Source of the DNA: Akkermansiaceae bacterium
Lineage (GTDB): Bacteria; Verrucomicrobiota; Verrucomicrobiia; Verrucomicrobiales; Akkermansiaceae
Length of the DNA stretch: 32,466 nucleotides
NCBI GenBank assembly: GCA_903878115.1
Contig: CAIRGO010000002.1
Coordinates: 1 to 32,466, forward strand
Direction: 5' to 3'
Below, piece after piece: positions 1,131 to 23,586 of the stretch. The notes beneath the pieces were generated by a model. That model did no database searches, was not told the origin of the DNA, and saw nothing but the letters and a program-made list of their open reading frames with translations. Made by a program: the position numbers and the translations under genes. Position 1 is the stretch's first letter, and the number at the start of each line of letters is the position of its first letter.

Positions 1131-2165
1131 TCAACGAATTTCAGGTAAATTCTTGCCTGAAGCTAGGGCGAAGTTTCTTTCATTCTTCGCAAGTTCTAGA
1201 TCTGCATCAGTCATGATTTGCACGAGCTCCTTAAATTTGACTTTTGGTTCCCAGCCGAGTTGTTTTTTTGCCTTTGCTGGATCACCGATGAGCAACTCGA
1301 CTTCCGCGGGACGCTCATAGCGTTTGTCGTAATCAACGTATTTTTCCCAATCGAGTCCGACGTGTTGAAAAGATTCTTGCACAAATTCTCTGACCGAATT
1401 TGTTTGATTGGTTGCCACCACATAGTCGTCGGGAGAATTTTGCTGTAGCATGAGCCACATCATTTCGACATATTCCTTTGCGTATCCCCAATCACGCTTT
1501 GCATCAAGATTTCCTAAAAACAGTTTATCCTGCAAACCCATCTTGATTTTTCCCGCAGCCCGCGTGATTTTTCGAGTCACGAAAGTTTCACCACGCCTCG
1601 GCGACTCATGATTGAACAAAATTCCATTGCTCCCGTGAAGTCCATAGCTTTCACGATAATTCACTGTTAGCCAATAGCCATAGACTTTGGCGCAACCATA
1701 AGGAGAACGTGGCCAAAAGGGCGTAGTCTCGGTCTGCGGAATTTCTTGAACTTTACCGAACATTTCAGAAGAAGACGCCTGATAGTAGCGTACTTTTTCA
1801 ATGATACCCGTTTGATGGATCGCTTCTAGCAATCGTTGCGTGCCTAGTCCGACAATATCACCGGTATATTCAGGCGCGTCAAAACTCACTCGAACATGGC
1901 TCTGTGCTCCTAAATTGTAAATTTCATCTGGTTCGATTTCATGCAACAATTTTGCGAGATTTGTTCCATCGGCAAGATCTCCGTAATGCAAAAATAAGCG
2001 AGTTCCGTCTTGATGAGGATCGCGGTAAATATGGTCGATACGATCCGTATTAAAAGTAGAGGCTCGACGTATAATCCCATGGACCTCGTACCCCTTTTCC
2101 AAGAGTAACTCTGTGAGATAGGAACCATCTTGGCCTGTGATGCCTGTGATTAATGCTTTTTTCAT
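1131..2165 (-). CDS. gmd: GDP-mannose 4,6-dehydratase
   Basis: Converts GDP-D-mannose to GDP-4-keto-6-deoxy-D-mannose, the first step to GDP-L-fucose, in the cytoplasm. It is an extended SDR enzyme of 344 aa: NADP-binding [11 protein letters not shown] at residues 7-17, SSSEMFGK at 131-138, the catalytic YGCAK (Y156, K160), and the Gmd-typical [16 protein letters not shown]. The ATG at 2165 is preferred because it places [14 protein letters not shown] at the N-terminus as in other Gmd proteins; an in-frame upstream start at 2189 would run back into the preceding gene. Only 4 bp separate it from the nucleotidyltransferase of module A, which lies between gmd and its pathway partner fcl, normally its neighbour. 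Confidence 0.96.
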
Positions 2166-2169
2166 ATTT

Positions 2170-2736
2170 TTAGTTTTGATCGAGAGCAACGACTACTTCG
2201 CTCCATGACTTGGTCAAATTGAGTTCCAATGCTGCTTCGGAAATCATAGCCATGTCCACTTGCTGCATGCGGCAGACTGCGACAATGTCTCTGATATGCT
2301 TGCCGTGTCCGCCTTCTTGATAGAAAGCCAGCTTATGTATGATCACATATTCAGGAGGCGCGACACTGATGGTTATGCCATCTTTGAAAAGTCGAATTTT
2401 TCGTTGTAATGCCCAAGCTAAGTAGGGATGATTTTTGGAAGGATAAATATCAGCTTTCATCCCTGAATCATGATGAATGATGTTGAAATGTCCGCGAATG
2501 CCTCGCTTGCATTCGATCTGAATCACATCGAGCGGTGGGAGATAATAGCTTTCCTCGGGAAAAATCGTTGGCAGCAACAAAATCTGAGCTGGATTGAGAA
2601 ATAAGGCAATGTCGATGTCAGCAGTGAAACGAGGTTCACCCAAAAGCGAGGTAGCAACGGAACCAGAGACGAGATACTCAAATCCCTCCTCCTCCAGGGG
2701 TGCGATAAAACAGCTAATGAGGTCAGGTGGTAGCAT
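2170..2736 (-). CDS. MNT/AbiEii-like nucleotidyltransferase-fold protein (module A)
   Basis: A 188-aa protein with the nucleotidyltransferase core: GS at residues 25-26 followed by TADIDIAL (D40, D42), a third acidic residue in KADIY (D96), and a C-terminal [10 protein letters not shown]...KHIRD block like that of AbiEii/MNT-type toxins. Active-site residues look intact. It is a full-length paralogue of the protein at 13275-13841, which has the same length and matching blocks such as IFPEE, YLPP and APPEYVI. The ATG at 2736 was chosen over an upstream start at 2811 because it matches the paralogue and overlaps the stop of the small upstream gene by 14 bp, suggesting translational coupling. 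Likely the enzymatic half of a toxin-antitoxin-like pair; the target (tRNA, protein or other) cannot be read from sequence. Confidence 0.85.
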
Positions 2737-2941
2737 GAAGAAAAATGTGGGCAAGTTCGCGTTTGACCTGTTCTTCGGTCCACTCGGGATGCTGATGCTT
2801 GAGCATCGCATATTTCATTTCACGTGCTTGGCGTTGGATACTGCAGAACAGTTCACATTTTTCTTGGAGGCTCATTTTTTTCCAAATCTCCATTTGTGCG
2901 GGATCTGGTAAATCATGGGATGAATGTGAGATTTTTTGCAT
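2723..2941 (-). CDS. Small helical partner of the module A nucleotidyltransferase (putative antitoxin)
   Basis: A 72-aa, probably all-helical protein. Its C-terminal half carries SLQEK, then AREMKYAMLKHQHPEWTEEQ, then a basic/acidic helix. The same pattern (SLxEK or TLxEK ... A..xK..ML[KR]..HP[DE]WTExQ) recurs in the small gene at 13834-14043, which also precedes a homologous nucleotidyltransferase. The shape resembles short proteins often annotated as Rv0078B-related antitoxins encoded beside nucleotidyltransferase toxins; that link is from memory and was not tested. It starts 24 bp after fcl ends and its stop overlaps the start of the nucleotidyltransferase by 14 bp. Existence is supported by the conserved pairing; the antitoxin role is inference. 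Confidence 0.75.
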   Translation of the reverse strand: MQKISHSSHDLPDPAQMEIWKKMSLQEKCELFCSIQRQAREMKYAMLKHQHPEWTEEQVKRELAHIFLHATT

Positions 2942-2965
2942 TATTATTCGGCATGCCAGTGCGTT

Positions 2966-3913
2966 TCACCCAACCCTTGCGCTACCATCTTGCAAAGACG
3001 AGAGGAAATCAGAATAAGCGGCTTTGAGCCCCTCTTGCAGCGATATTTGCGTGCGCCAACCAGAGGAGAGAATGAGTTGAGTGTCTAGGAATTTACGCGG
3101 ACAACCATCAGGTTTTGTCAAATCATTGACAATTTTGCCATCATATCCGACAGCTTTCGCTACCATTTGCGCAAGATTGGCGATACTAATTTCCTTGCCA
3201 GAGCCAACATTGATCCAATCGGGTGGATTTTCTAATTCTAACAAGTGGAAGCAAGCTTCGGCAAGATCGTCACAATGGAGGAATTCACGCAAGGGGGTTC
3301 CTGTTCCCCACATCGCGATCTCTTGATCACCATGTAGTTTTGCCTCATGAAAACGACGAATGAGCGCAGGGATAACATGGCTATTTTCCGCATGATAATT
3401 ATCGCCTGGACCATACAAATTGGTGGGCATGGCTGAATGATAGAGCAAGCCATACTGTTGACGATAAAACTGACACATTTTAAGACCCGAGATTTTTGCA
3501 ATCGCATAGGCCTCATTCGTAGGTTCAAGAGCGGCAGTATTCAATGCCTGCTCACGCACAGGTTGCTCAGCAAATTTAGGATAAATGCAAGAGCTACCTA
3601 AAAACAATAGACGTTTAACACCTGCACGTCGCGAACCTTCGATGAGATTGATTTCCAATGACAGATTGTCATAAATAAATTCTGCTGGATACTGTGAATT
3701 CGCCCAAATACCTCCCACTTTCGCGGCAGCAATGATCACACAATCTGGCTGATGTTTTTCCAAGTAGGAAAACACAGCCTGCTGATCCCGTAAATCAAGT
3801 TCATTACGATCGACCGTGATGATATTTTGATAGCCTCGCTGTTCCGCAGAACGCACCAGAGCCTTGCCAACCATACCTTTATGGCCACAGATAAATAATT
3901 TTTCTGATGTCAT
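2966..3913 (-). CDS. fcl: GDP-L-fucose synthase (GDP-4-keto-6-deoxymannose epimerase/reductase)
   Basis: Performs the 3,5-epimerisation and NADPH-dependent 4-reduction that turn the Gmd product into GDP-L-fucose. The protein is 315 aa: ICGHKGMVGKALVR at residues 8-21 binds NADP, AAAKVGGIWANS is typical of the family, GSSCIYP lies at 106-112, and the catalytic pair is Y136/K140 in YAIAK. The PTNLYGPGDNY and ENSHVIPALIRRFHEA blocks are also classic Fcl. The ATG at 3913 is chosen because it forms an ATGA overlap with the stop of the upstream glycosyltransferase; an upstream frame-open start at 3952 would add 13 unrelated residues. Module A separates it from gmd. Confidence 0.96.
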   Translation of the reverse strand: MTSEKLFICGHKGMVGKALVRSAEQRGYQNIITVDRNELDLRDQQAVFSYLEKHQPDCVIIAAAKVGGIWANSQYPAEFIYDNLSLEINLIEGSRRAGVKRLLFLGSSCIYPKFAEQPVREQALNTAALEPTNEAYAIAKISGLKMCQFYRQQYGLLYHSAMPTNLYGPGDNYHAENSHVIPALIRRFHEAKLHGDQEIAMWGTGTPLREFLHCDDLAEACFHLLELENPPDWINVGSGKEISIANLAQMVAKAVGYDGKIVNDLTKPDGCPRKFLDTQLILSSGWRTQISLQEGLKAAYSDFLSSLQDGSARVG

Positions 3914-5031
3914 GAAAATTTTTCTGTCATTTCGTTGATTTGATGATGCCATGCTTCTGCAAATACATGATCTGTAAAGTAAGCCTCATAGCGTCTCCGC
4001 GCAGCAAGACCCATGTCGGCGAGCTTGCTTCGATCTACTAACATTTCTCGTAATGCAGCACATAGAGATTCTGTGTTGGCTGGCTCACAAAAAACACCTT
4101 CTATACCCTCGCGCACCGCCTCACGAGTCGCCCCCACATCAGTTACGATTGAAGGAACTCCATAAGACATTGCGTCTAACAACGCCAGCGGAAATGCTTC
4201 CGTCCAAGAGGGAAGGCAAAAAATGTCGGCTTTTAGTAGAAGCTCCGATTTTTCCAATCCATACGCGGGTCCTTGATAGCAAATTCGTTCCGGAAACTTG
4301 CCAAGATCAAACTTCGCTTTCACTTCAGTTTCGATTTCATTGATGCCAATATTACCGCGAAACAGAAAGCGAACATCGGAAAACTCTGCGCACAGTATTT
4401 CTGCGGCATCGAACAATTCGCGCCAGCCTTTTTCTTGATCAATCACAGAAATGAACAGTGCATTAATTTCGTGATTCATTCCTGGCACTGCCTGTCGTGT
4501 CAAACAGCCGGCCGTATCTGAAATCCCATTCGCAATTTCTCTAATCGGCTTACTCTTCGTCCATGCTGGCCAAGTTCGTGAAAGTGATGGCGCGCAGGCA
4601 ACCCAACCTTCGATCGAACGCACTAAGAAGCGAGCGATTTCCTTGAACCAGAGCGGACGATTCTCTAGGTCTAGTCGATTCGGGTCCATGTGCACCCACA
4701 CCAGCACACGACAACCTAGAATCCACCGTGCAAAGAAAACCAAAGCACAGTCTTTTAGAAATGGTCCGGGAAAAAAGGCAAATGTAGTGATCAGTAGGCG
4801 CGCATTTTTATCGCAGACTAACCTTTGAAGCTCTAACAAGTATTGCCAGAATCTAGCGATTTTACCAAACGAAAACCCACGTAGTTTTGCGCGATCTTCA
4901 TCATACACTGCATTGATTGGATGAATGACAACATCATTCCACGAACGGCTTTGATTCAACAATACATTTGCCATCATCGCTTGACCATGAATGACAGGAT
5001 TGATGTGCGTGAATAAAATGGCGTTTTTCAC
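3910..5031 (-). CDS. GT4-type (GT-B fold) glycosyltransferase, group 1
   Basis: A cytoplasmic or membrane-associated glycosyltransferase of about 373 aa that probably adds one sugar of the repeat unit. The C-terminal half shows the Glycos_transf_1 signature: FISVIDQEKGWRELFDA, LLKADIFCLPS, then WTEAFPLALLDAMSYG, which is the EX7E donor-binding motif with Asp in place of the last Glu. The N-terminal half begins with NAILFTHINPVIHGQA, the usual first strand and Gly-rich loop. I take the GTG at 5031 as the start because it places this strand at the N-terminus; the longer frame from 5112 would overlap the end of wbpE. The 3' end overlaps fcl by 4 bp (ATGA). Acceptor and donor are not deducible; it is one of only two glycosyltransferases in the operon. 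Confidence 0.88.
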   Translation of the reverse strand: MKNAILFTHINPVIHGQAMMANVLLNQSRSWNDVVIHPINAVYDEDRAKLRGFSFGKIARFWQYLLELQRLVCDKNARLLITTFAFFPGPFLKDCALVFFARWILGCRVLVWVHMDPNRLDLENRPLWFKEIARFLVRSIEGWVACAPSLSRTWPAWTKSKPIREIANGISDTAGCLTRQAVPGMNHEINALFISVIDQEKGWRELFDAAEILCAEFSDVRFLFRGNIGINEIETEVKAKFDLGKFPERICYQGPAYGLEKSELLLKADIFCLPSWTEAFPLALLDAMSYGVPSIVTDVGATREAVREGIEGVFCEPANTESLCAALREMLVDRSKLADMGLAARRRYEAYFTDHVFAEAWHHQINEMTEKFS

Positions 5032-5062
5032 AACTGCGGAATGCCGAGCAAGACTTCGATGA

Positions 5063-6157
5063 CTAGGCCAACACGGCTTTGAACGCGTCGCACACTTGTT
5101 GCACTTCTGCATCAGCGAGATACGGATTCATCGGCAGGCTTAGGCCGTGACTGGCTACGCGCTCGGCGATAGGAAAATCACCTATTTGATGACCCAGATA
5201 CGCAAATACGGGTTGTAGGTGCAAGGGAACAGCGTAGTAACTGACGCTTGGCACGCCGGCCTTGGCCAGTGAGGCACTTAATTCATCGCGCTGTGGATGG
5301 AGAATCGTGTATTGCGCATAGACGCTGGTATTTCCGGGAGCGAGTCGCGGGATTTCCACTCCGAGAGGCGCTAGAGCAGCATTGTAGCGTTCTGCGACCA
5401 GTTGACGTTTGATGATTTCATCAGGAAAAATTTCCAATTTTTCTAACAAAATTGCCGCTTGCAGAGTATCGAGGCGGCCATTGATTCCGACGATAGGATG
5501 GTGGTGTTTTTTCGCCTGACCATGAACCCTAATTTGGCGCATGATGCCGGCTAAATGATCATCGTCTGTAAATAATGCACCGCCATCGCCATAACAGCCG
5601 AGAGGTTTCGAGGGGAAAAATGATGTGCTGCCGATAACAGATAATGCACAAGATTGTTTGCCGTAATGAGTAGACCCGAAGGACTGAGCCGCGTCCTCAA
5701 TAACAGGAAGATTGTATTTTGTAGCAATGGCATTGATCGCAGTCATGTCTGCGGTTTGCCCGTATATGCCGACGGGCATGATGGCTTTTGTTTTGGGAGT
5801 AATGGCAGCTTCCAACTGACTAGCGTCCATATTATAGGACACTGGGTCAATATCGACAAATACAGGAGTCGCATGAATCAGCGCAATCATTTCTGCGGTA
5901 GAAATCCATGTATAAGGAACTGTAATAACCTCGTCACCAGGCCCGATGCCCAATGCCATGAGGGCGATGAGCAAGGTATCTGTGCCACTAGCAGCTCCAA
6001 TGCAATGCTTTACCCCCACGTAGTCCGCAAGGCGTTTTTCTAACTCTTCTACTTCAGGCCCCATGATGTAGGCTCCGTGTTCGAGGACAGTTGCGATGCG
6101 ACGATCAATTTTTTCGCGAATGCGTTTCTGTTGTGATTTTAGGTCGATGAATTCCAT
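5063..6157 (-). CDS. wbpE: UDP-2-acetamido-2-deoxy-3-oxo-glucuronate aminotransferase (WbpE type)
   Basis: PLP-dependent DegT/DnrJ/EryC1 sugar aminotransferase that aminates C3 of the 3-keto sugar made by WbpB, using glutamate. The 364-aa protein begins MEFIDLKSQQ and carries GAASGTDTL, IPV-type strand IMPVGIYGQ, VIEDAAQSFG and STSFFPSKPLGCYGDGGA with the PLP lysine at residue 184. The last block matches Pseudomonas WbpE closely, as far as I recall its sequence. An open frame continues upstream to 6214, but the extra residues are encoded by the heptamer repeat, so the ATG at 6157 is preferred. It lies 59 bp after wbpD and 31 bp before the GT4 gene. Together with wbpA, wbpB and wbpD it completes the route to UDP-GlcNAc(3NAc)A. 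Confidence 0.94.
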   Translation of the reverse strand: MEFIDLKSQQKRIREKIDRRIATVLEHGAYIMGPEVEELEKRLADYVGVKHCIGAASGTDTLLIALMALGIGPGDEVITVPYTWISTAEMIALIHATPVFVDIDPVSYNMDASQLEAAITPKTKAIMPVGIYGQTADMTAINAIATKYNLPVIEDAAQSFGSTHYGKQSCALSVIGSTSFFPSKPLGCYGDGGALFTDDDHLAGIMRQIRVHGQAKKHHHPIVGINGRLDTLQAAILLEKLEIFPDEIIKRQLVAERYNAALAPLGVEIPRLAPGNTSVYAQYTILHPQRDELSASLAKAGVPSVSYYAVPLHLQPVFAYLGHQIGDFPIAERVASHGLSLPMNPYLADAEVQQVCDAFKAVLA

Positions 6158-6164
6158 GGTATTT

Positions 6165-6199
6165 GTATAGTGTTTAGTGACCAGTGAGCAGTGATCAGT
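6165..6199. repeat. Five imperfect 7-bp tandem repeats before wbpE
   Basis: On the plus strand five consecutive heptamers read GTATAGT, GTTTAGT, GACCAGT, GAGCAGT and GATCAGT, giving a consensus G-N-N-(C/T)-A-G-T. Seen from the wbpE direction they read ACTGATC, ACTGCTC, ACTGGTC and so on. The array fills most of the 59-bp gap between wbpD and wbpE and ends 7 bp from the wbpE start codon. Similar ACTG-type heptamer arrays occur in intergenic DNA of other bacteria; here the function is unknown. The array is seen directly; its number of copies may vary between strains. Confidence 0.75.
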
Positions 6200-6216
6200 T
6201 TTTGATAGGGTCAAAA

Positions 6217-6852
6217 TTATTTGAACTGATCATACGTTTTTTCACCTAGGGTGAGGTTCTCAGGTAAAGGAGCTTCCTCATCGAGATCGAGGCAACGGAC
6301 TTGATTGTTTTCTAACTGGTAGCGGAATGCCGATTCGGGGCAAATTGCCTGACCTGAATCGTCGAAGTGCAAAAGATGACCGTGTCGGCTCATCCAGCCT
6401 TTTTGTCTGCCAGGCACACCCATGATAAAACCGTAATCGGGCACATCTTTGGCAACTACGGCTCCTGCAGCAACGAAAGAATACCGGCCAAGTACAATTC
6501 CACAGACAATGGTAGCATTGGCACCAATCGTAGTGCCTCGTCGAATCAGAGTGGTTTCATATAGACTATGACGTTTTACCTGACTGCGCGGGTTGGTAAC
6601 ATTAGTGAGCACACAGGAAGGACCAAGAAAAACATCGTCCTCGATCGTAGTGCCCGTATAGATCGCGACGTTATTTTGCACTTTTACGTTAGATCCAATG
6701 ACGACATCGTTGGCGACCATGGTGTTTTGACCAAAAATGCAACGTTCCCCGATTACTGCACCAGAACAAATGTGGGCAAAATGCCAAATTTTTGTACCAT
6801 CGCCGATGCTTACATTGTCGTCGATAATGGCGGTGGAATGAACTTGGAACAT
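6217..6852 (-). CDS. wbpD: UDP-2-acetamido-3-amino-2,3-dideoxy-glucuronate N-acetyltransferase (WbpD/WlbB type)
   Basis: Acetyl-CoA-dependent N-acetyltransferase acting on the 3-amino group added by WbpE, giving UDP-GlcNAc(3NAc)A. The 211-aa protein is a left-handed beta-helix: residues about 7-150 are hexapeptide repeats (for example IGDGTKIWHFAHICSGAVIG, VQNNVAIYTGTTIEDDVFLG, IGANATIVCGIVLG), ending in FVAAGAVVAKDVPDYGFIMG. The block GPSCVLTNVTNPRS is typical of the WbpD/WlbB subgroup. A C-terminal tail with PESAFRYQL follows, often found in this subgroup. It follows the module C partner gene (30 bp gap) and precedes wbpE by 59 bp. Confidence 0.92.
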   Translation of the reverse strand: MFQVHSTAIIDDNVSIGDGTKIWHFAHICSGAVIGERCIFGQNTMVANDVVIGSNVKVQNNVAIYTGTTIEDDVFLGPSCVLTNVTNPRSQVKRHSLYETTLIRRGTTIGANATIVCGIVLGRYSFVAAGAVVAKDVPDYGFIMGVPGRQKGWMSRHGHLLHFDDSGQAICPESAFRYQLENNQVRCLDLDEEAPLPENLTLGEKTYDQFK

Positions 6853-6882
6853 GATTTCTTAGATTACAGTGATTTAATATAT

Positions 6883-7206
6883 TTACACAACAGTATGCTT
6901 ATTGTGACGACTGAAACGATGATCTAGTGCGTTTTCAAATTTTGTCATTCTCCCATTGTAAGCACGATACTGTGTATATGGGTCGTCATATTGTTTTGCT
7001 AACATCGCATATAGTTGAAGTTCGGCCTCTGCTGGCAACTCTGTATCTTGACAGTGCAATATCCCATATTTTCTGAGCCGATTGGATACGATTGCTACGA
7101 GAAGACTTTCGACAGTGATGCGTTTCGCTAGAAAATCATGGAGCCCTGGACGAATCAGTTCTTCGCCGGGTAGATTATTCAGCAAATTGTCACACTTAAT
7201 GTTCAT
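6883..7206 (-). CDS. Conserved partner of the module C nucleotidyltransferase, function unknown
   Basis: A 107-aa protein, probably mostly helical, with LPGEELIRPGLHDF near residues 13-26, SLLVAIVSNRLRKYGI at about 34-49 and a C-terminal YTQYRAYNGRMTKFENAL. I recall the general pattern (LPG..L...GL.D, a helix ending in RLR, then YN..I+RL.SFE.A) from small proteins encoded right beside DUF6036-type nucleotidyltransferases, but cannot check it here. Its ATG at 7206 lies inside the end of the nucleotidyltransferase gene (11-bp overlap), which suggests coupled translation. In contrast to modules A and B, the partner comes second. An antitoxin or accessory role is inference. Confidence 0.72.
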   Translation of the reverse strand: MNIKCDNLLNNLPGEELIRPGLHDFLAKRITVESLLVAIVSNRLRKYGILHCQDTELPAEAELQLYAMLAKQYDDPYTQYRAYNGRMTKFENALDHRFSRHNKHTVV

Positions 7207-7729
7207 CAGAGTTACAAAACGTATTTACTCTATCTATCAGAGCTTCTTGATCTAAAGCAGGATACTTCTCTAGCTGAGGAACCACCTCCTGAAATAGCTC
7301 GCGTAGTCGAGCACGTGTGATCAACTGAGATTGAATCATACCATTTACATCAATCAAATCCCTCGGATGCCCTCTAGAGATTTTTGCTAATGCTTGAGAG
7401 AAAAAATCAAAGTGATAGAAATTGACATTTTTTATACCCGCAATCCAGATACTGCGAGTTTGCCAACCAGGTAGCGCAGGCACAAACTGATCAGGACTAG
7501 CTAATTCTAAATTGACTTCTAATCGATTCTTCAAGTTCTGAAGAGTTTTATAAAAGCCATCTGGTTCTGGATCAGCTTTCATGTCGATATCGATAGTGCT
7601 AGAGCGCCAGCCATACATCACGGCACAGGCACCTCCAGTAAGATAGATGCTGCCCACACCCTTGGACTCCCGAAGAAACTCTTCGATGAATGATTTTAAT
7701 TTAGATTGATCTAGCGGCACCTTAGACAT
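7196..7729 (-). CDS. DUF6036-like nucleotidyltransferase-fold protein (module C)
   Basis: A 177-aa nucleotidyltransferase-fold protein. The core is YLTGGACAVMYGWRSSTIDI with GG at residues 32-33 and D47/D49, then ELASPDQFVPALPGWQ, then FYHFDFFSQALAKISRGH with the likely third acidic residue D108, and RDLIDV. These blocks fit the DUF6036 group and differ from modules A and B, although the fold signature is the same. The active-site carboxylates are present. It starts 15 bp after wbpB ends and overlaps the downstream partner by 11 bp, sitting between wbpB and wbpD of one biosynthetic route. A toxin-like or regulatory role is possible; the substrate is unknown. Confidence 0.82.
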   Translation of the reverse strand: MSKVPLDQSKLKSFIEEFLRESKGVGSIYLTGGACAVMYGWRSSTIDIDMKADPEPDGFYKTLQNLKNRLEVNLELASPDQFVPALPGWQTRSIWIAGIKNVNFYHFDFFSQALAKISRGHPRDLIDVNGMIQSQLITRARLRELFQEVVPQLEKYPALDQEALIDRVNTFCNSDEH

Positions 7730-7744
7730 GAGAAAAACTTAAAA

Positions 7745-8677
7745 TCACGAATCTATTCCCGCTAAAACACGCACAACATCTAGGCCATTTTTGCCACAGG
7801 ACCGTGGTGTTTCGCGGGTTTGGATACAGTGCATGAAATGTTGCATTTCAGCGGTGAGAGCTTGAAAGTTGGGAGGGGCCTGGAAAAGCAACTCTGTTCC
7901 TTGGTCCACATTGTTGAGTTGAGAGTCGATAGTTTTTTTTATAAGAGTTACCGTTTCCGCTTTCTCATCATAGACCAGCATCCCTTTTTCTCCAATCACT
8001 CGTAAGCCACGGCGATCTTCTGGCCAGAGCCAAGAGTTGTGCAAGTGTGCTTTGCAGCCATTCGCAAAGGTCATGTGCAAATAGGTATCATCCTCAATTC
8101 CTTGATTGAGAGCCGAATGCCCGCAAAAGAGAGAGCTAACAGGAGCCTCACCAACAATAAAAAGCAGCGCAGCAACATCATGCACACCAAGACTCCACAG
8201 CGCGTTCTCTACAGCACGCGCTTTTCCTAATTTCATGCGTTCTTGATGTAAGGTAAACAGTTTTCCGAGATAACCGTCGCGCAAATAATTCCGTATAAAT
8301 TCAACGGCGGGTTTGTAAAGTAACAAATGCCCAACCATTAGCAATTTCCCCTTAGCCGCTGCGTAGGCACAGAGTTTTTCTGCCTCGGCGACATTCAAAG
8401 TCAGTGGTTTTTCTACAAATACATCGAGGCCCGCATCCATCGCAGCCACCGCGATTGTGTAATGCGTGTGCGCAGGGGTTGCAATCACGACGGCGTTCAC
8501 ACCTGAATGCAGCAGCGGACGATAATCGTCAAACAACAATGCCTGCGGACAAACCTGTGCCGCGTTATCACGATTCTGCGACACTGCATCAGCGACGGCA
8601 TGCAAAGTGCCTAACTCTGCGAGAGTGCGCACGAGATTTTTGCCCCACGCACCTGCTCCTATGACTCCGATTTTCAT
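7745..8677 (-). CDS. wbpB: UDP-GlcNAcA 3-dehydrogenase-like Gfo/Idh/MocA oxidoreductase (WbpB/WlbA type)
   Basis: Expected to oxidise C3 of UDP-GlcNAcA with NAD, giving the 3-keto substrate for WbpE. The 310-aa protein has an N-terminal Rossmann domain (GVIGAGAWGKNLV), the family EKP motif in VFVEKPLTLN (about residues 88-97), and LGVHDVAALLF carrying the conserved His of the catalytic region; the C-terminal half is the usual alpha/beta dimerisation domain. The ATG at 8677 is used; an in-frame TTG at 8686 adds three residues. It directly follows wbpA (16 bp). The family is certain; the exact substrate rests on the company of wbpA, wbpD and wbpE. Confidence 0.88.
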   Translation of the reverse strand: MKIGVIGAGAWGKNLVRTLAELGTLHAVADAVSQNRDNAAQVCPQALLFDDYRPLLHSGVNAVVIATPAHTHYTIAVAAMDAGLDVFVEKPLTLNVAEAEKLCAYAAAKGKLLMVGHLLLYKPAVEFIRNYLRDGYLGKLFTLHQERMKLGKARAVENALWSLGVHDVAALLFIVGEAPVSSLFCGHSALNQGIEDDTYLHMTFANGCKAHLHNSWLWPEDRRGLRVIGEKGMLVYDEKAETVTLIKKTIDSQLNNVDQGTELLFQAPPNFQALTAEMQHFMHCIQTRETPRSCGKNGLDVVRVLAGIDS

Positions 8678-8693
8678 GCGTACCAATCAAAAA

Positions 8694-10016
8694 TTACGCC
8701 TTCACCAATTGGCCCAGATTCGGGATCAGTGAGGATTTTGCGAAGGCATTTCTCGTATCAATGATAAGAGGAGCCCATTCTTTTAACTCTAACAAATTCA
8801 CCGCATTGTGGTTTGTAGAAATCACAACGCAATCGTATTGGCTGATCGTTTGTTGATTCCAATCAACAGAGGTAACGCCAGTCCAATTCGCATGCTCCCT
8901 AGTTGGGGATACTACTGGGATATGCGGGTCATGGTAATCCACAGCAGCTCCTAAAGATTTGAATCCATCCAATAATTCAAAACTTGGTGACTCGCGCATG
9001 TCATCGACATTTTCTTTATACGCGAGCCCCAAAATAAGGATCTTACTACCCTTCACTGATTTGCCTTTATCATTGAGAGCTTCCATCGTTCGCTGAATCA
9101 CATAACGCGGCATCGAACGATTGATCTCTCCGGCAAGTTCGATGAATCGAGTATGCACACCGAATTCTCGGGCTTTCCACGTAAGATAAAATGGGTCAAT
9201 AGGAATGCAATGACCGCCCAAGCCCGGGCCAGGATAAAACGCTTTGAAGCCGAAAGGCTTGGTGGCAGCAGCATCAATGACCTCCCAAATATCGATGCCC
9301 ATGGCGTCAGCAGCAACCTTCAGCTCATTCACAAGACCGATGTTCACTGCTCGATAAATATTTTCTAACAATTTTGCAAACTCGGCCACTTGAGTAGAAC
9401 GCACTGGCACTACTTTTCCAAATACGGCACTATAAAGCGCGACACCTGCTTCTGCGCAAGCGGGTGTTGTGCCACCGACCACTTTGGGAATATTCAGTCC
9501 CGCAAAATCAGGATTACCCGGGTCCTCACGCTCGGGAGAATAGACAAGGAAAATGTCTTTGCCGACAACGAGCCCGCGGGCTTCAATGCGAGGACGAAGT
9601 TCTTCTTCTGTAGTGCCTGGATAAGTCGTGCTTTCCAAACTCATTATCTGCCCCGTTTTCAAATGCGGCACTATTGCATCCACCGTATTGATCACATAAC
9701 TTAAATCCGGTTCGAAATGTTTGTCCAAAGGAGTAGGCACGCAAATGATCAACGCATCGACTTCGCTCACGCGACTAAAATCAGCAGTGGCTTCTAGATA
9801 TCCAGCGTTTACTGCCTGCGCGATCGGGGCCTCAGCAATGTGCTCGATATAACTTTGACCAGCGTTAATGTGGTTGATTTTTTTTGCATCAACATCAAAG
9901 CCGATCGTCTTGTGATGTTTGTTGGCATATCCCAAAATCAAAGGAAGCCCCACATAGCCAAGTCCCACAACGCCAATAACTGCTTGTCTGTTTTGTATTT
10001 TTTGATTCGTATTCAT
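8694..10016 (-). CDS. wbpA: UDP-N-acetyl-D-glucosamine 6-dehydrogenase
   Basis: NAD-dependent four-electron oxidation of UDP-GlcNAc to UDP-GlcNAcA, first step of the Wbp route. The 440-aa protein shows three domains of the UDP-sugar dehydrogenase family: [12 protein letters not shown] near residues 15-26, the central dimer domain with [20 protein letters not shown], the catalytic [16 protein letters not shown] (C270), and a C-terminal Rossmann domain with [17 protein letters not shown]. The GGHCIPIDP form is the WbpA/WecC subtype and clearly differs from the Ugd at 11869-13257. Its ATG overlaps the stop of the SGNH gene (ATGA), indicating coupled translation. Confidence 0.94.
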
Positions 10017-10759
10017 TTCGTAATAATTTTTTCCGCTAGTTCTGTTGCCAAAATAGAGTAACCAGTTTGATTTAAGTGCAGTCCATCTTTACTATACTCA
10101 TTTTTTGTTCTGCCGTTCGGAGCTACGATTGCTGCTGCATCTAAAACGAAAACTCGATGTTGCATCTCGATAATTTTTTTATTAATTTCAATAACCGCCG
10201 CGTGCATTTCAGCAGTCCACAAAAAACGATCTCTTAAGGAGTTATTGCCCTTAGGAATTATGGTTGTTATCACAACTGAAACATTCCGATCTAACAGCAT
10301 CGTGACCATAGACTCCATATTTTCAACGATTTGTAATTTCACTGATTCGAGAACTGATGGATCATAGCCTGATGCTTGTATGTCGTTAATTCCACATTGA
10401 ATCACAGCATAACGAGGTGCTTCGCTCTTTGATAGATCGCCTTTCAGTTTTGTTAGCACTTCGCCACTTGTTAGGCCACTGACACCACAATTAAACCATA
10501 CGTCGTAAGGGAAATCATGAGGCTTATTCCACGCCTCCGCTCTTGAATCACCAATCATCCACAATACTGATTGATTTGGAAATGCTGGGAGTTGAGTCCC
10601 CTCGTATGCTGGATGATTCGCTAATTTGTATTTCCACAATCTGCCTTTGTAATCAATGACTTTTGCAAACAAGTATATTGAACTCAACAATAAGCATAAA
10701 TTGCTAATAATGAGAAGTGTAAGCCAAACATTTTTCGACTTTATGAATTGAAAACTCAT
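10013..10759 (-). CDS. Membrane-anchored SGNH/GDSL-family hydrolase-like protein
   Basis: A 248-aa protein with one N-terminal transmembrane segment (about residues 10-32) and an extracytoplasmic SGNH domain. All four blocks are visible: block I GDSRAEAW (S72), block II Gly in NCGVSG, block III CGIND (N125), and block V DGLHL (D225, H228). Family members are esterases or acyl/acetyl transferases acting on sugars. The gene follows the AT3 acyltransferase by 12 bp and overlaps wbpA by 4 bp. In OafA-like proteins an AT3 membrane domain and an SGNH domain are fused, with SGNH completing acyl transfer; here they may be the same machine split into two genes (inference). Alternative: a polysaccharide deacetylase. 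Confidence 0.85.
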
Positions 10760-10771
10760 TCGAAATTTTTC

Positions 10772-11851
10772 TTATCTAGCAATTTTACTATTGCACCAAT
10801 CTAACACATTTTTTTCAAACACCTTCCAAACAATCAAACAGGAAGCGAGTGTTAGCAATGCGTTTGAGCCCATCATCACATAAGGATAATCATGCAAAAT
10901 GGAAACTTTATGCAAAATTGTTTTGAAAACGGCTACAAAAATCAAATGAAACAAATAGATCGTATAGGAGGCATCTCCTATCATACGCATGAACGACGGC
11001 CAAACAAACGAAGAGTTCCGATCAAGAGAAACGGCCCCCCAGAGCAATAGACCAAATGCACTTCCCCAAAAGAGAGTTTTGATAGAGAGAAATTGATAGG
11101 CCCACTGATCTGTGAGAAAATGATTCGATGACGCGCTGCAAATCAGAATAAACGCGGGAATTATAAGCGAAGCTTGCCAAAGTTTATTTGAATAATTCCT
11201 AGCAACCAGCGCGATGAGAACACCGATAAAAAATTGCAAATTGTGTGGATGAAAGATAAAAGATAGCGCACCTTCAAATCTCTGATAATGGCCAGTAAAA
11301 TCTAAACCGAGTATCAATAAAACCCATGCAATAAAGAATGCCCAAAATACTTTTCTCCCTAGTATCACTCCAAACAAAAACACCATGTAAAACAACATTT
11401 CGTGGACCAAAGTCCATGCTCCACCTACAAATGTTGGTTTCGCGGGTAAGAGAAAAAGTGTGGAAAGTAATGCGTCCATTTGCAAATCCCCCTTCATCCA
11501 CAATGAACCTGCGAACATTGCTAATACGAATTTAAGAACTAAAGCGCCGAGTAAGACTGGATAAATTCTGGCCAATCGTTTCAACAAAAAGTATCTGCTT
11601 GTATCAGGTTTACCTAAATCTTTCTCATGAATCCAGAAGATGATAAAACCGCTGAGAACAAAGAAAAAGTCCACACCCAAGTGCCCAGCTTCCATATACC
11701 CTCCCAAAAAACGTTCAGAGAAGACTGGCTGTACCACTTCACCTTTCGTATCAGCTCTATACCTTCCATCAATATGATACAGAAGAACACATAAGGCCGC
11801 GATACCACGAAACACTTGTAGCGAACCAAGATTTTTTCGAATTGCATTCAT
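10772..11851 (-). CDS. Acyltransferase family 3 (AT3/OafA-like) membrane O-acyltransferase
   Basis: An integral membrane protein of about 359 aa with roughly ten hydrophobic segments. AT3 hallmarks are the N-terminal LQVFRGIAALCVLLYH, holding the R-X10-H motif (R15, H26), then GVDFFFVLSGFII, RLARIYPVLL and WTLVHEMLFYMVF. Such proteins carry acetyl or other acyl groups across the inner membrane and modify O-antigen, capsule or lipid A sugars. Start choice is uncertain: ATG at 11851, or an in-frame GTG at 11872 that would overlap the ugd stop by 4 bp and add seven residues. It sits between ugd and the SGNH gene. The acyl group and acceptor are unknown. Confidence 0.88.
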   Translation of the reverse strand: MNAIRKNLGSLQVFRGIAALCVLLYHIDGRYRADTKGEVVQPVFSERFLGGYMEAGHLGVDFFFVLSGFIIFWIHEKDLGKPDTSRYFLLKRLARIYPVLLGALVLKFVLAMFAGSLWMKGDLQMDALLSTLFLLPAKPTFVGGAWTLVHEMLFYMVFLFGVILGRKVFWAFFIAWVLLILGLDFTGHYQRFEGALSFIFHPHNLQFFIGVLIALVARNYSNKLWQASLIIPAFILICSASSNHFLTDQWAYQFLSIKTLFWGSAFGLLLWGAVSLDRNSSFVWPSFMRMIGDASYTIYLFHLIFVAVFKTILHKVSILHDYPYVMMGSNALLTLASCLIVWKVFEKNVLDWCNSKIAR

Positions 11852-11868
11852 GCCTGGTTTCTCATCAA

Positions 11869-13257
11869 TCACTTCTGACCATGCCCAATCGAATAGACTT
11901 CAAATCCCATCGTCTTCATGATCTCTTGCGGCAGGATATTTCTTCCATCAAAGGCGAAGGCAGGTTTGTGCATGTTTTGATAGATTTGTTCAAAATTTAG
12001 ATCGCTAAATTCATCCCATTCTGTGAGGACGACTAATGCATGTGCGCGATCGAGAGAGGAAACGGCACTCTGACAATATTCGAGATTTTTTTCCAGCGTC
12101 GCGACGGGCACACCAGCATTTGTTAAATCCTTTATCATACTTGCTATTGGCACCTTCGGATCATAGATGGCAACTTTGGCGTTTTCCATGAGTAAGTCCC
12201 GCACCACGTAGATGGCTGCTGACTCACGGGTATCGTTGGTGTCTTTCTTAAAAGCAAAGCCGAGGACTCCGATTTTTTTGCCGGAAACCGTATTGAAAAG
12301 AGTCTGTACGATGTTCTGCGAAAACCGTGACTTTTGCCAATCATTCATTCGGATGACTTGTTCCCAGTAAGCGGCGACTTCGGGCAGGCCGAAATGCTCA
12401 CAGAGGTAGACGAGATTGAGGATGTCTTTTTGGAAGCAGGAGCCACCGAAGCCGACGGAAGATTTGAGGAATTTGGGGCCGATGCGTGAATCGTAACCGA
12501 TCGCGCGGGCTACTTCATCAATATTGGCGCCGGTTTTTTCGCAGAGTGCGGAGATTGAGTTGATCGAGGAAATGCGCTGAGCAAGGAATGCGTTGGCAAC
12601 GAGTTTGGAAAGTTCCGATGACCAAGTATTGGTGATGAGAATTTTTTCGCGCGGAATCCAGTTGGCATAAACTTCTACCAAGCTTTCGATCGCAGCCAGT
12701 CCTTCTTCGGTTTGTTCACCGCCGATGAGGATACGGTCGGGATTTTCCATGTCTGTAATCGCGGTGCCTTCCGCGAGAAATTCAGGATTCGATAAGACCT
12801 GGAATTTTCCAGAAAGCGAGTTTGTATTGAGAATCGTGCTCAGGGCCTCAGCGGTGCGTACTGGAATCGTGCTTTTTTCTACGACGATCGTAGGACCTTG
12901 CGCCTCTTCCGCAATCAGCCTTGCGGCCGATTCCACGTAGCAAAGATCGGCGGCACGGCCCGCTCCCGCGCCATAGGTTTTGGTGGGGGTTCCTACCGAC
13001 ACGAATACCATATCAGCTTCACGAATTTTTTCGCGCACTTCGGTGGAGAAAAATAAATTCTTTCCTCGACTCGCCCGCACTACGTCATCAAGTCCGGGCT
13101 CGTAAACGGGGAGTTGATCGGAATTCCATGCGGCAATACGCGCTTCGTTGATATCGACAACATCGACGGTTATGTGCGGGCACTTGTAGGCAATCATCGC
13201 CATAGTAGGGCCGCCTACATAACCAGCTCCAATGCAACAGATTTTGGTAATTTTCAT
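11869..13257 (-). CDS. ugd: UDP-glucose 6-dehydrogenase, animal-type
   Basis: Oxidises UDP-glucose to UDP-glucuronate with NAD. The 462-aa protein starts [20 protein letters not shown] and contains [44 protein letters not shown] and the catalytic [20 protein letters not shown] (C274). The [14 protein letters not shown] start, GRAADL block and [13 protein letters not shown] are features of the eukaryotic UGDH subfamily rather than of the shorter bacterial Ugd. An in-frame TTG at 13278 overlaps the preceding gene, but the ATG at 13257 matches the family N-terminus. Product UDP-GlcA would feed the UDP-xylose synthase at 14897-15847; module B and the methyltransferase lie between the two. Confidence 0.95.
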
Positions 13258-13274
13258 GAGACTAACAGAAAATG

Positions 13275-13841
13275 TCAACTATTTGGCTTTGTTGCCTGAA
13301 CTCGATCCCAGGTGGAGCTTAGGTGACGCTGAGTAATTTGTTCTCGCAGGAATGTGAAGTCAATTTCGGAGCTCGTGCTATCAATGATGTTGGCTATATC
13401 GCGCAAGTGTTTCTCCGAGCCGCCTTCTTGGAAAAACTCCATTTTTCTCAAGATCACATATTCTGGCGGCGCGAATGAGACATGGATCTCAGACATTTGA
13501 ATCCGAACGGGTCTCGCCAAAGCCCAATGGTGGAGTGGATCATTTCCAGAGATGTAAACATCCGCTTTGAGCATACTTTCAAGGTGGATGATATTGAGAT
13601 GACCTCGTTGCGTTCTAATACACTCCGCTGTGATTACGTCAGCAGGCGGCAAATAGAATTGCTCTTCTGGAAAAATTTTGCATAACAGTGGAACCTGCAT
13701 TCTCGAAATTTCAACTATCAAATCAATATCATTGGTGAGACGAGGCTGGGCATAAGCGATCGAAGCAACAGAACCGGTGATCAAATAGCGGAACCCGCTT
13801 TTTTCCAGTGGCTGAACAAATGTTGAAATGAGGTCAATCAT
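13275..13841 (-). CDS. MNT/AbiEii-like nucleotidyltransferase-fold protein (module B)
   Basis: A 188-aa paralogue of the module A nucleotidyltransferase (2170-2736), identical in length. Core residues: GS at 23-24 in [20 protein letters not shown] (D38, D40), third carboxylate D94 in LKADVY, and the C-terminal [14 protein letters not shown]...KHLRDI block (K133, D148). [14 protein letters not shown] and GHLNIIH align with [14 protein letters not shown] and GHFNIIH in module A. Divergence between the two copies is substantial, so they are not a recent duplication. Its ATG overlaps the stop of the small upstream gene by 8 bp, and it ends 17 bp before ugd. Target unknown. Confidence 0.85.
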
Positions 13842-14043
13842 GCATCAAAAAAAGCATGCGCCGAGCCTCTTTCAGAAGTTGTGCTTCTGTCCAATCGGGG
13901 TGAGATCTGCGAAGCATTCCGATTTTTACAACTTTTGCCGTTTCATACAAAGCTTGAGCAATGTTTAGCTTTTCCTCCAGCGTAAGAACACGATGAGGCT
14001 GGAGTCTTAGGTTGGGATTTGCATTTCCCATTTTAGCTTTCAT
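13834..14043 (-). CDS. Small helical partner of the module B nucleotidyltransferase (putative antitoxin)
   Basis: A 69-aa basic, probably helical protein. After a short N-terminal tail it reads LTLEEKLNIAQALYETAK, then VVKIGMLRRSHPDWTEAQ and a final KEARRML helix. This aligns without gaps to the module A partner (2723-2941), sharing the L-EEK start, the ML-R/K-x-x-HP-D/E-WTE core and a downstream charged helix. The stop overlaps the start of the nucleotidyltransferase by 8 bp, and the gene starts 4 bp after the methyltransferase stop. The recurrence of a homologous small gene in front of a homologous enzyme is the best evidence that both are real and function as a pair. Confidence 0.76.
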   Translation of the reverse strand: MKAKMGNANPNLRLQPHRVLTLEEKLNIAQALYETAKVVKIGMLRRSHPDWTEAQLLKEARRMLFLMHD

Positions 14044-14047
14044 AACT

Positions 14048-14875
14048 TTATAAAACTTCTAAAACCCCCACCCTACCATCGGCCTCGAAAGAACGATAGA
14101 AACTTTGGTTACTATTTTCAAAAACTTGCTTGATCATTGGCCAGCCCTCGCTGACATCATCCATAAAAACAAAACCACCTTTGCGCATCAGTGGATAAAT
14201 TTTTCCCAATTCATTTTCTACATAAGCGGATTCATGATTGCCATCGATCAAGGCGAAATCAAACGATGCCACTTGAAGTTGTTTCAGGTTCTCGATGACC
14301 GAGTGAGGCGCATGCTCTTGGGCGATTTTTTGTTCCACTTCCTCTGACTCTAACAAGCGATAATTTTCCAAGTAATTTCGCCCGTCATTGCTCACATTTT
14401 TTTCGTGGGAGAATCCGCAGCAAATCATCACGTTGCCAGAAAGGCCGAAATGATCAAGCATGGAACAAACGTGGTCTTGTGGATGCTGAATGCCGCGATG
14501 TTCCAGATTGGGATCCACGGAAACAACAAGTGATGCTGCATGGATTTTGCGAACGACATCAGCCAAATAAGTTAGGGAAATTCCGAGAAAATTCCCCACA
14601 TGCAGACCGCGTAGACCACGCGAAGAGTCGCTGTATTGGACCAAGATGGATGCAAGAAATGCTAATGACGCCTCAGGCATGGTGCCTTCCCTGGCTTGTG
14701 TGCGATCGACGCCACGAGATACGACGAAATCTATCAAGGCTGTATGAGCGATGGGAGGAACAGAAGCATTTTTTCCTTGGATCGCAGCCCGTCCGCGCTG
14801 ATATCCTCGTTCCTGGCGAGTTTGCACTAGGCGCACTATGCCATGGGGAAGAATGTATTTTACCAATTGCTTCAT
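14048..14875 (-). CDS. Class I SAM-dependent methyltransferase-like protein
   Basis: A 275-aa protein of the Methyltransf_24-like type. The first Rossmann strand and loop read RGLHVGNFLGISLTYLAD (about residues 88-105), followed by the strand LVVSVDPN with the acidic residue at the end, and FDFALIDGNHESAYVENELG and KGGFVFMDDV near the C-terminus. The DGNHE/DD pattern is common in sugar O-methyltransferases and other cluster methyltransferases. The N-terminal 45 residues are basic and may be membrane- or partner-associating. It lies between module B and uxs in a polysaccharide operon, so methylation of a sugar of the repeat unit is likely; the substrate is inference. Confidence 0.8.
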   Translation of the reverse strand: MKQLVKYILPHGIVRLVQTRQERGYQRGRAAIQGKNASVPPIAHTALIDFVVSRGVDRTQAREGTMPEASLAFLASILVQYSDSSRGLRGLHVGNFLGISLTYLADVVRKIHAASLVVSVDPNLEHRGIQHPQDHVCSMLDHFGLSGNVMICCGFSHEKNVSNDGRNYLENYRLLESEEVEQKIAQEHAPHSVIENLKQLQVASFDFALIDGNHESAYVENELGKIYPLMRKGGFVFMDDVSEGWPMIKQVFENSNQSFYRSFEADGRVGVLEVL

Positions 14876-14896: not shown

Positions 14897-15847
14897 TTAC
14901 TGCAAAACAAAATCACGAAAATAATCGATGGTTTGCTTGATTCCTTCATCAAACGCGACCACTGGCTCCCATTGCAGAATTTCTCTGGCCCGTGAAATAT
15001 CTGGCTGCCTTACTTTTGGATCATCAGGTGGCAAGGGGCGAGGATCAAGGATCAGTTCAATCTTGAAATGCCGTGCAATGGCTTCAGCAAATTGAAGAAT
15101 CGTCATTTCATGCGGATTGCCACAGTTAACCGGTTCATGAAAATTGCTATTGGCTAGACGCCAAATGCCTTCCACCAAATCCGTCACATAACAAAACGAG
15201 CGCGTTTGCGAACCGTCGCCAAACATCGTCATTGGCTCACCGCGCAGTGCTTGCCCGATGAAGGCCGGAACGACCCGTCCGTCATCGAGCCGCATGCGCG
15301 GACCGTAGGTATTGAAAATCCTAACAATTTTCGTATCGAGACCATGCATTCGATGATATGCCATGGTCACAGCTTCCGCATAACGCTTCGCCTCATCGTA
15401 ACAACTGCGCAAGCCAATCGAATTGACATTCCCCCAATACGTTTCTTGCTGTGGGTGAATTTCTGGATCTCCATATACCTCCGAGGTTGAGGCCACTAAA
15501 TAGACAGCATTTTTTCTCAATGCTAAATCAAGCGCGTTATGCGATGCATACGATCCTGCTTTCAATGTTTCAATAGGGATTTGCACATAGTCAATGGGAC
15601 TAGCGGGAGAAGCCATGTGAAAAACAAAATCAACATCGCCCTCAACATCGAAAGGGACAGATACATCATGTTCTATCAATTTAAAGTGATCATTATTCGA
15701 TAGGTGACTTACGTTTCGTGCATTGCCCGTCACAAAATTATCAAATGCGATGACACGTAATCCTTCAGCCAATAATTTATCTACCAAATGTGATGGAACA
15801 AATCCTGCTCCGCCGGTGACGACTGCCGTTTTTAGTGATTTTCCCAT
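14897..15847 (-). CDS. UDP-glucuronate decarboxylase (UDP-xylose synthase)-like SDR
   Basis: A 316-aa extended SDR. It resembles [23 protein letters not shown] (about residues 76-95), STSEVYGDP at 120-128, catalytic Y150/K154 in YDEAKRYAE, and [10 protein letters not shown] followed by [10 protein letters not shown]. It would convert UDP-GlcA from Ugd to UDP-xylose. The cofactor loop reads [11 protein letters not shown], with Pro where most relatives have the third Gly of GxxGxxG. A dTDP-glucose dehydratase-like function is less likely given ASPIDY. The end is 21 bp before the methyltransferase and it follows glf by 7 bp. Family call strong; product slightly less sure. Confidence 0.88.
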
Positions 15848-23486: not shown

Positions 23487-23586
23487 TGTTCTCGAAGTTA
23501 TAGGTTTATATCCATATTCCCCTTTAGTTCTCTAAACATAATAAAAAATGACAGCAATGCAATTTTTCAGACGTAACTGTGACTTT

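What the first reader, a model, noticed from the sequence alone, without database searches (positions are those of the whole stretch)
2170..14043. Three nucleotidyltransferase modules, each splitting one sugar-nucleotide pathway of the operon
Modules at 2170-2941, 6883-7729 and 13275-14043 are each a nucleotidyltransferase-fold gene overlapping a small partner. They sit exactly between gmd and fcl (GDP-fucose), between wbpB and wbpD (UDP-GlcNAc(3NAc)A), and between ugd and uxs (UDP-xylose, with a methyltransferase also between). All are on the same strand and tightly spaced, so they are co-transcribed with the enzymes. Two readings: addiction modules that stabilise pieces of a mosaic glycan cluster, or modification enzymes tying glycan synthesis to defence or stress (phage receptors are often glycans). 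The pattern is seen; the role is inference.
Basis: partly seen in the sequence, partly recalled or inferred. Interest (0 to 1): 0.78.

Follow-up and report, generated by a model that had tools for sequence, protein, structure and literature searches.

The report
Toxin-antitoxin cassettes inside glycan operons
Three small gene pairs, two of them related to a known toxin-antitoxin system, are wedged between partner enzymes of a bacterial sugar-coat operon, and their close relatives keep turning up in such operons in related species, which suggests toxin-antitoxin lineages specialised for living inside surface-glycan gene clusters.

Summary
Three nucleotidyltransferase (NTase) pairs sit, co-directional and with 4-30 bp gaps, between fcl|gmd (M1), wbpB|wbpD (M2) and uxs-methyltransferase|ugd (M3). 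M1 and M3 are MenAT1-like toxin-antitoxin (TA) modules by sequence: partners match the Rv0078B antitoxin family, NTases keep the MenT1 catalytic T/D/K/D pattern. M2 is a different NTase (DUF6036) with an undescribed conserved ~105-aa partner. No other copy was found in the 4.4-Mb genome. In the same bacterial family (Akkermansiaceae-like), 22 of 24 closest homologues lie within 4 kb of glycan or sulfate-activation genes, all co-directional, against 0/14 weaker homologues and 0/20 arbitrary regions; by a wider count without the sulfate genes, 20/34 against 2/24 PIN toxins. Junctions differ between species: uxs|ugd filled in one congener, empty in three; fcl|gmd filled by M1 here, by an M2-type pair in two other genomes, empty in four; cysD|cysN filled, empty, or holding antitoxin plus a gutted toxin. 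The modules are site-mobile but niche-restricted and under purifying selection. A role as operon locks is the likeliest reading, but inferred; passive accumulation in a high-turnover locus is the main rival. Toxicity is untested.

The parts
2723..2941 (-). M1 partner, 72 aa, MenA1-like (Rv0078B-related) antitoxin
   Evidence: PF18993 E 8e-5, 23.0 bits, below the cut-off of 27.1; all 14 aligned partners match PF18993 at E <= 0.01
2170..2736 (-). M1 NTase, 188 aa, MenT1-like; between fcl and gmd
   Evidence: AbiEii E 6.5e-4, below cut-off; 47% identical to the M3 NTase; catalytic residues conserved
7196..7729 (-). M2 NTase, 177 aa, DUF6036
   Evidence: PF19502 E 2.3e-7, above cut-off; family alignment
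6883..7206 (-). M2 partner, 107 aa, no family
   Evidence: no match in Pfam, PADLOC or NCBIfam; found beside the M2 NTase in 14 of 14 other loci examined; alignment
13834..14043 (-). M3 partner, 69 aa, MenA1-like antitoxin
   Evidence: PF18993 E 2.3e-7, 31.1 bits, above cut-off
13275..13841 (-). M3 NTase, 188 aa, MenT1-like; between the uxs-methyltransferase unit and ugd
   Evidence: DUF2204 E 4.1e-5, above cut-off; family profile finds MenT1 8an4 at E 0.0027
1131..2168 (-). gmd, GDP-mannose 4,6-dehydratase
   Evidence: PF16363 E 3.6e-145
2966..3952 (-). fcl, GDP-fucose synthase
   Evidence: Epimerase E 5.7e-64; synteny with congeners
6217..6852 (-). wbpD-like acetyltransferase
   Evidence: hexapeptide repeats; PDB 3mqg E 2.6e-65
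7745..8686 (-). wbpB-like Gfo/Idh dehydrogenase
   Evidence: PF01408; NCBIfam UDP-GlcNAc 3-dehydrogenase model below its cut-off; PDB 3c1a
11869..13278 (-). ugd, UDP-glucose dehydrogenase (ATG probably at 13257)
   Evidence: PF03721 E 1.8e-60; 77-81% identical single match in each of 9 congeners
14048..14875 (-). methyltransferase between M3 and uxs
   Evidence: PF13578; 73% identical beside the same module in G383
14897..15847 (-). uxs, UDP-glucuronate decarboxylase
   Evidence: PDB 4gll E 4.5e-103

Best explanation
M1 and M3 are MenAT1-like toxin-antitoxin modules (a small MenA1-like antitoxin followed by a MenT1-like tRNA-nucleotidyltransferase toxin); M2 is a second, unrelated NTase pair that probably works in the same way. 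They belong to NTase lineages that have become residents of surface-glycan operons in this bacterial family: they change junctions but stay inside glycan or glycan-sulfation clusters, in the direction of the operon. Likely mechanism (inferred): they are read mainly from the operon's transcript, so the antitoxin is supplied only while the operon is intact and expressed; loss, replacement or breakage of the operon lets the toxin outlast the antitoxin and stops translation by adding nucleotides to tRNA ends. The modules would act as locks on a locus that is often swapped and lost, and profit from its transfer. Shown: family by sequence, lineage-specific residence, filled and empty sites, purifying selection, toxin loss with antitoxin kept. 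Inferred: toxicity, tRNA target, co-transcription, locking. My estimates: MenAT1-like TA identity of M1/M3 0.85; lineage-specific glycan residence 0.95; lock role 0.4. The figure below is for the whole statement, taken loosely on the lock.
For: PF18993 match of both partners and of 14 of 14 aligned family partners. MenT1 residues T39/D41/K137/D152 (PMC10435456, passages) correspond to T36/D38/K133/D148 with spacings 2/95/15 against 2/96/15, kept in 57/56/57/57 of 57 rows. Family profile finds MenT1 8an4 (E 0.0027). Residence: two or more glycan genes within 9.5 kb for 20/34 close homologues of the family, against 2/24 PIN toxins (p 9e-5), 0/14 weaker homologues (p 9e-5) and 0/20 arbitrary regions (p 5e-6); with sulfate-activation genes added, 22/24 of the closest within 4 kb, 84 of 84 such genes co-directional. 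Filled and empty junctions. G313 keeps the antitoxin but has an in-frame deletion of the toxin core. Five of six MenT pairs have dN/dS 0.04-0.12, the sixth is saturated.
Against: No toxicity or transcription data. Promoter-like sites ahead of the M1 and M3 partners are not excluded. Homologues of 100-200 bits in the family are in such clusters in only 3 of 10 cases, close homologues in other families of the order in 2 of 23, and outside the order none of 25 lies in a glycan operon within 1.5 kb: the module does not need a glycan neighbour. Other small genes (PIN, MNT-HEPN, 23S_rRNA_IVP) also occur in these clusters. Congeners keep the operon without a module at the same junction. M2 against PIN is not significant at the stricter count within 5 kb (3/14 against 1/24 with two or more genes, p 0.13).
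Confidence: 0.55

Rival explanations
1. Passive accumulation: glycan clusters are a high-turnover region where small mobile TA modules and other small genes land and are carried along by recombination; these are ordinary TA systems with no tie to the glycan.
For: Positions vary between species. A 23S_rRNA_IVP gene fills cysD|cysN in two genomes; PIN and MNT-HEPN genes occur in the same clusters. An MNT-HEPN module inserted in a lysine operon of one Thermus strain and not another is in print (PMC2701414, passage).
Against: The habit follows NTase lineage, not genome: weaker homologues in the same bacterial family 0/14 and sampled PINs 2/24; five genomes of the family carry a sister-lineage NTase without glycan neighbours. 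Purifying selection as strong as on ugd.
Confidence: 0.3
2. Phage defence: the modules are abortive-infection systems placed in the operon that makes the phage receptor, so that defence and receptor are expressed and inherited together.
For: AbiEii-type and DUF6036 NTase similarity; surface glycans are common phage receptors (recalled). Weak PADLOC AbiEii match of M2 (E 7.9e-4).
Against: M1 NTase and all three partners have no PADLOC match, M3 NTase only E 0.011; no homologue in phage records; no phage data.
Confidence: 0.12
3. The NTases are glycan enzymes or regulators of the pathway, not toxins.
For: Residence between consecutive pathway genes of the same strand.
Against: No sugar-nucleotidyltransferase family match; congeners keep the same junctions without modules; unrelated modules occupy the same junction in different genomes; G313 keeps the small protein but lost the catalytic core.
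Confidence: 0.05

Closest known systems
MenAT1 (Rv0078B-Rv0078A) of Mycobacterium tuberculosis
   Same: Small antitoxin gene upstream of an NTase toxin; partner in the Rv0078B-related antitoxin family; catalytic residues and their spacing.
   Different: M1 and M3 are distant in sequence (8an4 found only by profile, E 0.0027) and sit inside glycan operons; PMC10435456 (section 6 read) describes no such setting for the 21 menA1 genes it surveyed.
MNT-HEPN TA modules
   Same: NTase plus small partner; insertion into a biosynthetic operon is recorded (PMC2701414, passage).
   Different: M2 NTase is DUF6036 and its partner lacks a conserved R-x4-6-H motif (motif recalled; alignment); M1/M3 partners are Rv0078B-like.
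AbiE type IV TA systems
   Same: NTase of the AbiEii superfamily (weak match for M1 and M2).
   Different: No AbiEi-type antitoxin: partners are 69-107 aa and match Rv0078B or nothing.

Membership tests
MenAT1 (M1, M3) | Rv0078B-related antitoxin (PF18993) encoded upstream of the NTase | tested here: met
   M3 partner above the cut-off, M1 partner below it (23.0 against 27.1 bits); 14 of 14 aligned family partners match at E <= 0.01; gene order
MenAT1 (M1, M3) | NTase of the DUF1814/AbiEii type related to MenT1 | tested here: inconclusive
   AbiEii matched by 12 of 24 members and DUF2204 by 9 of 24; 8an4 at E 0.0027 over positions 17-63 only
MenAT1 (M1, M3) | Catalytic T39, D41, K137, D152 | tested here: met
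   T36, D38, K133, D148 with matching spacing, 57/56/57/57 of 57 rows; no direct alignment to MenT1 over the whole length was made
MenAT1 (M1, M3) | Toxin arrests growth, antitoxin restores it; tRNA 3' extension; asymmetric 2:1 complex | not testable with these tools
   needs experiments
MNT-HEPN (M2) | Partner is a HEPN RNase with R-x4-6-H | tested here: not met
   no HEPN family match; spacing between conserved R and H differs across 8 aligned partners (motif recalled)
DUF6036 NTases (M2) | PF19502 match above the cut-off | tested here: met
   31.2 bits against 23.6
Sugar-1-phosphate nucleotidylyltransferases | Match to a sugar-nucleotidylyltransferase family | tested here: not met
   only AbiEii, DUF2204 and DUF6036 matched at E up to 1
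Transposon or integron cassette | Flanking repeats or recombination signals at the module ends | tested here: inconclusive
   no shared repeats at the module flanks in the window; repeats flank the G313 module, but the two repeat strings I counted are absent from, or sparse in, most of 11 loci

The most novel reading that the evidence does not exclude
A class of operon-integrity guards: MenAT1-like and DUF6036-type modules that settle in the gap between genes whose products must work together (fcl|gmd, cysD|cysN, uxs|ugd, wbpB|wbpD) in surface-glycan operons, so that a recombination, deletion or silencing that breaks the pathway releases a tRNA-modifying toxin. This would enforce all-or-none inheritance of glycan types and counter phage-driven loss of the glycan.
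Probability: 0.25. Interest if true: 0.87.

Novelty: new variant of a known kind. Interest (0 to 1): 0.7.

Why it matters
What chromosomal TA modules are for is a long-standing open question. Here is a natural set in which particular TA lineages are confined to one kind of operon, with matched filled and empty junctions in close relatives and with other NTase lineages and PIN toxins of related or the same genomes as controls. That makes the guard, hitchhiker and defence hypotheses directly testable, and it adds an undescribed NTase-partner pair (M2).

Tried and rejected
Fold comparison was given up: the AlphaFold models had mean pLDDT 43.7 and 50.0, so no fold search was run. Single proteins against solved structures found nothing useful; the profile of 14 antitoxins gave chance-like hits and did not find MenA1; the M2 NTase profile found nothing credible. 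Genome contigs searched with the two-sequence NTase alignment gave nothing. No insertion signature was found: the modules' flanks in the window share no repeats, and the longest repeat lies inside the two NTase genes. Ideas dropped: that the enrichment is a general habit of TA genes in this bacterial family; a single inherited insertion (neighbours differ, and M1-clade and M3-clade modules both occupy cysD|cysN).

Limits: the genomes are mostly fragmented. Glycan genes were called by similarity to 43 panel proteins from the window and the E. coli K-12 O16/colanic clusters, 40 of them counted, so unlike glycan genes are missed. One search uses 4 kb and adds CysC/D/N, which I chose after seeing them beside modules, so it is partly post hoc; (9.5 and 5 kb, no Cys genes) are not. 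PIN controls were not re-scored with Cys genes. Of 24 listed family hits of 50-100 bits only 14 were fetched; one left out (G301:C389:13840, partial) lies in a glycan cluster and is a truncated close relative, and some others left out are fragments. The 10 weaker homologues from other families are part of a capped list. Four of 83 rows were dropped from the tree for being under 140 aa. The 57 rows of the residue count include one weaker homologue (G268) that my script let in. Two weak M2 hits (G296, G298) were not examined. The 20 arbitrary regions were picked by me by contig number, not drawn by a program; one is 3.4 kb, one 6.7 kb. The 24 cysD|cysN loci are not a random sample: most were fetched because they had a module. 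In G269 (and G264) gmd reads in two frames.
Full report
WHAT IS THERE. The window is a whole 32,466-base contig of a 4.41-Mb, 331-contig genome. Its IspG protein is 84% identical to one in a record titled Akkermansiaceae bacterium UBA956, so I call the host Akkermansiaceae-like; its genus has no name here. On the minus strand, from about 17,000 down to 350, runs a glycan gene cluster: Glf, Uxs, methyltransferase, M3, Ugd, acyltransferase, GDSL protein, WbpA-like, WbpB-like, M2, WbpD-like, DegT, GT4, Fcl, M1, Gmd, WecG. Gaps between modules and neighbours are 4-30 bp if the ATG starts are right.

WHAT THE MODULES ARE. M1 and M3 NTases are 47% identical and their partners are related. The M3 partner passes Pfam's cut-off for the Rv0078B-related antitoxin, the M1 partner falls below it; all 14 family partners that I aligned match that model. 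A profile of 24 NTases finds a PDB NTase (5uvd, E 3.8e-7) and MenT1 (8an4, E 0.0027). MenT1 residues T39, D41, K137 and D152 were mutated in PMC10435456 (passages and section 6 seen). Here T36, D38, K133 and D148 have spacings 2, 95, 15 against 2, 96, 15 and are conserved in 57, 56, 57 and 57 of 57 rows. M2 differs: a DUF6036 NTase followed by a partner with no family in Pfam, PADLOC or NCBIfam; NTase and partner stand together in 14 of 14 other loci examined (one search lists 16), and a partner without a detected NTase occurs in G274.

HOW SPECIAL THE PLACE IS. In its own genome the M1/M3 NTase family has two members and the M2 NTase one, all in this window. I fetched flanks of all 34 other homologues of 100 bits or more in the bacterial family (260 genomes searched), 14 of 24 weaker ones (50-100 bits), all 23 homologues of 100 bits or more from other families of the order (189 genomes), 10 weaker ones from there, and 20 arbitrary regions of carrier genomes. 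Two or more glycan-panel genes within 9.5 kb: 20/34 (18/24 at 200 bits or more, 2/10 at 100-200), 0/14, 2/23, 0/10 and 0/20. A control of 24 PIN toxins, every fifth listed row (1 to 116) of a search of 20 genomes including this one, gave 2/24 (Fisher p 9e-5); within 5 kb it is 14/34 against 1/24 (p 0.0018). M2 homologues: 12/14 with at least one glycan gene within 9.5 kb against 4/24 PINs (p 8e-5); with two or more, 6/14 against 2/24 (p 0.034); within 5 kb with two or more, 3/14 against 1/24 (p 0.13). Several hits without panel genes lie between or beside cysD and cysN. Counting CysC/D/N too, 22/24 of the closest lie within 4 kb of such a gene and all 84 of these genes are co-directional; 3/10 at 100-200 bits, 0/14 weaker, 2/23 and 1/10 in other families, 0/20 arbitrary regions (made after I had seen the Cys genes). 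The two left are both on one 9.3-kb contig of G274, with an M2-type partner and an AbiEii-like NTase.

HISTORY. A tree of 79 NTases puts M1 in a clade of 16 rows (support 100/97) and M3 in one of 11 (99/96), with a third of three rows (96/96: G385 of this genus and two genomes of another family); a sister group of 23 rows (93/79), five of them from this bacterial family, has no glycan label. With the labels only the two G274 rows in the three clades lack a glycan or Cys neighbour; one weaker row elsewhere has one, on the other strand. The tree then needs 5 changes (4 forced by well-supported branches) against 23.8 for shuffled labels, none of 500 as low. Neighbours differ: methyltransferase|ugd (window), methyltransferase|fcl (G383), uxs|ugd (G140), GT4|fcl (G106), wbpA|DegT (G117), cysD|cysN (many). 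Residence is inherited; the exact junction is not.

FILLED AND EMPTY SITES. Uxs|Ugd holds a module in G140 and is empty (45-72 bp between alignments) in G386, G120 and G106. Fcl|Gmd is empty (5-48 bp) in G140, G383, G385 and G384, holds M1 in the window, and holds an M2-type pair in G269 and G315. CysD|CysN was read in 24 loci: empty (7-149 bp) in 6; a MenAT pair in 14 (M3-clade in G310, G311 and G269, M1-clade in the others; in G264 in tandem with an M2 pair, in G268 with a further ORF); MenA plus a broken MenT in 2 (G313: in-frame internal deletion that removes all four catalytic residues; G301: only the first 73 of 190 positions align); a 23S_rRNA_IVP gene in 2 (G304, G317). Loss of the toxin core with the antitoxin kept is what a TA pair predicts, though two cases are few.

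SELECTION. Of six MenT pairs five gave dN/dS 0.04-0.12 (M3 against G383 with dS near 3, so rough) and one was saturated; MenA 0.05 and 0.18; M2 NTase 0.14 twice; M2 partner 1.02 on very few changes, uninformative; ugd 0.09.

BEYOND THE ORDER. In a phylum sample of 387 genomes 30 had homologues at E <= 1e-25, 25 of them outside the order. In one 1.5-kb-flanked locus from each of these 25 the antitoxin stood beside the NTase every time, and no glycan operon did (one convergent Gfo/Idh gene); four loci read with 20 kb gave one WcaJ-like gene about 7 kb away, and in that locus (L239) no antitoxin was detected. No homologue in phage records at E <= 1e-5, six distant ones on plasmids. So the module exists without a glycan neighbour; only some lineages have settled there.

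MECHANISM. As in the best explanation. MenA1 blocks MenT1 by asymmetric binding (PMC10435456, abstract and passages) and induces its phosphorylation at T39 (PMC11375011, abstract and section 12); the conserved T36 fits this. Everything about toxicity, tRNA and locking in this organism is inference.

KNOWN OR NEW. Insertion of an MNT-HEPN module into an operon is in print (PMC2701414, passages). Seven library searches on TA or NTase terms with polysaccharide, capsule, LPS, Verrucomicrobia or cysDN terms (listings with the starts of abstracts, some lists capped) showed me no report of TA lineages confined to glycan operons; the library holds open-licence papers only. Term searches inside PMC3710099, PMC13174399 and PMC7356697 (passages) gave none either. 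I rate it a new variant of a known kind.

Noticed in passing
L163:11923-14924, L088, L090, L085 and other g4 loci: cysC, cysD and cysN follow Glf-Fcl-Gmd-WecG-Ugd in the same cluster, which suggests a sulfated glycan; sulfotransferases were not looked for.
   Followed up: partly
L090:1366-2105; L088:7604-8170; L163 near 9888: Other TA-like genes in the same clusters: an MNT-HEPN pair after cysN, an AbiEii-like NTase before cysD, a PIN gene between ugd and cysC.
   Followed up: partly
L081:1-9265 (G274:C239): One 9.3-kb contig holds two MenAT modules, an M2-type partner without a detected M2 NTase, and an AbiEii-like NTase.
   Followed up: no
L088:10337-11641: A 435-aa ORF with no Pfam match, between a MenAT module and cysN; similar ORFs lie beside modules in L077, L078 and L081.
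   Followed up: no
L233:7872-8505: Repeats of the CTGAAA/TTTCAG kind on both sides of the module with the gutted toxin in G313; 18 such hexamers in that gap, 0 to 8 in the 23 others. Possible substrate for excision.
   Followed up: partly
L082:3423-3779 and the cysD-cysN gap of L234: 23S_rRNA_IVP (PF05635) genes occupy the cysD|cysN junction in two genomes.
   Followed up: no
window 22325-24990: A peptidyl-arginine-deiminase-family gene and a sulfatase gene stand side by side outside the glycan cluster.
   Followed up: no
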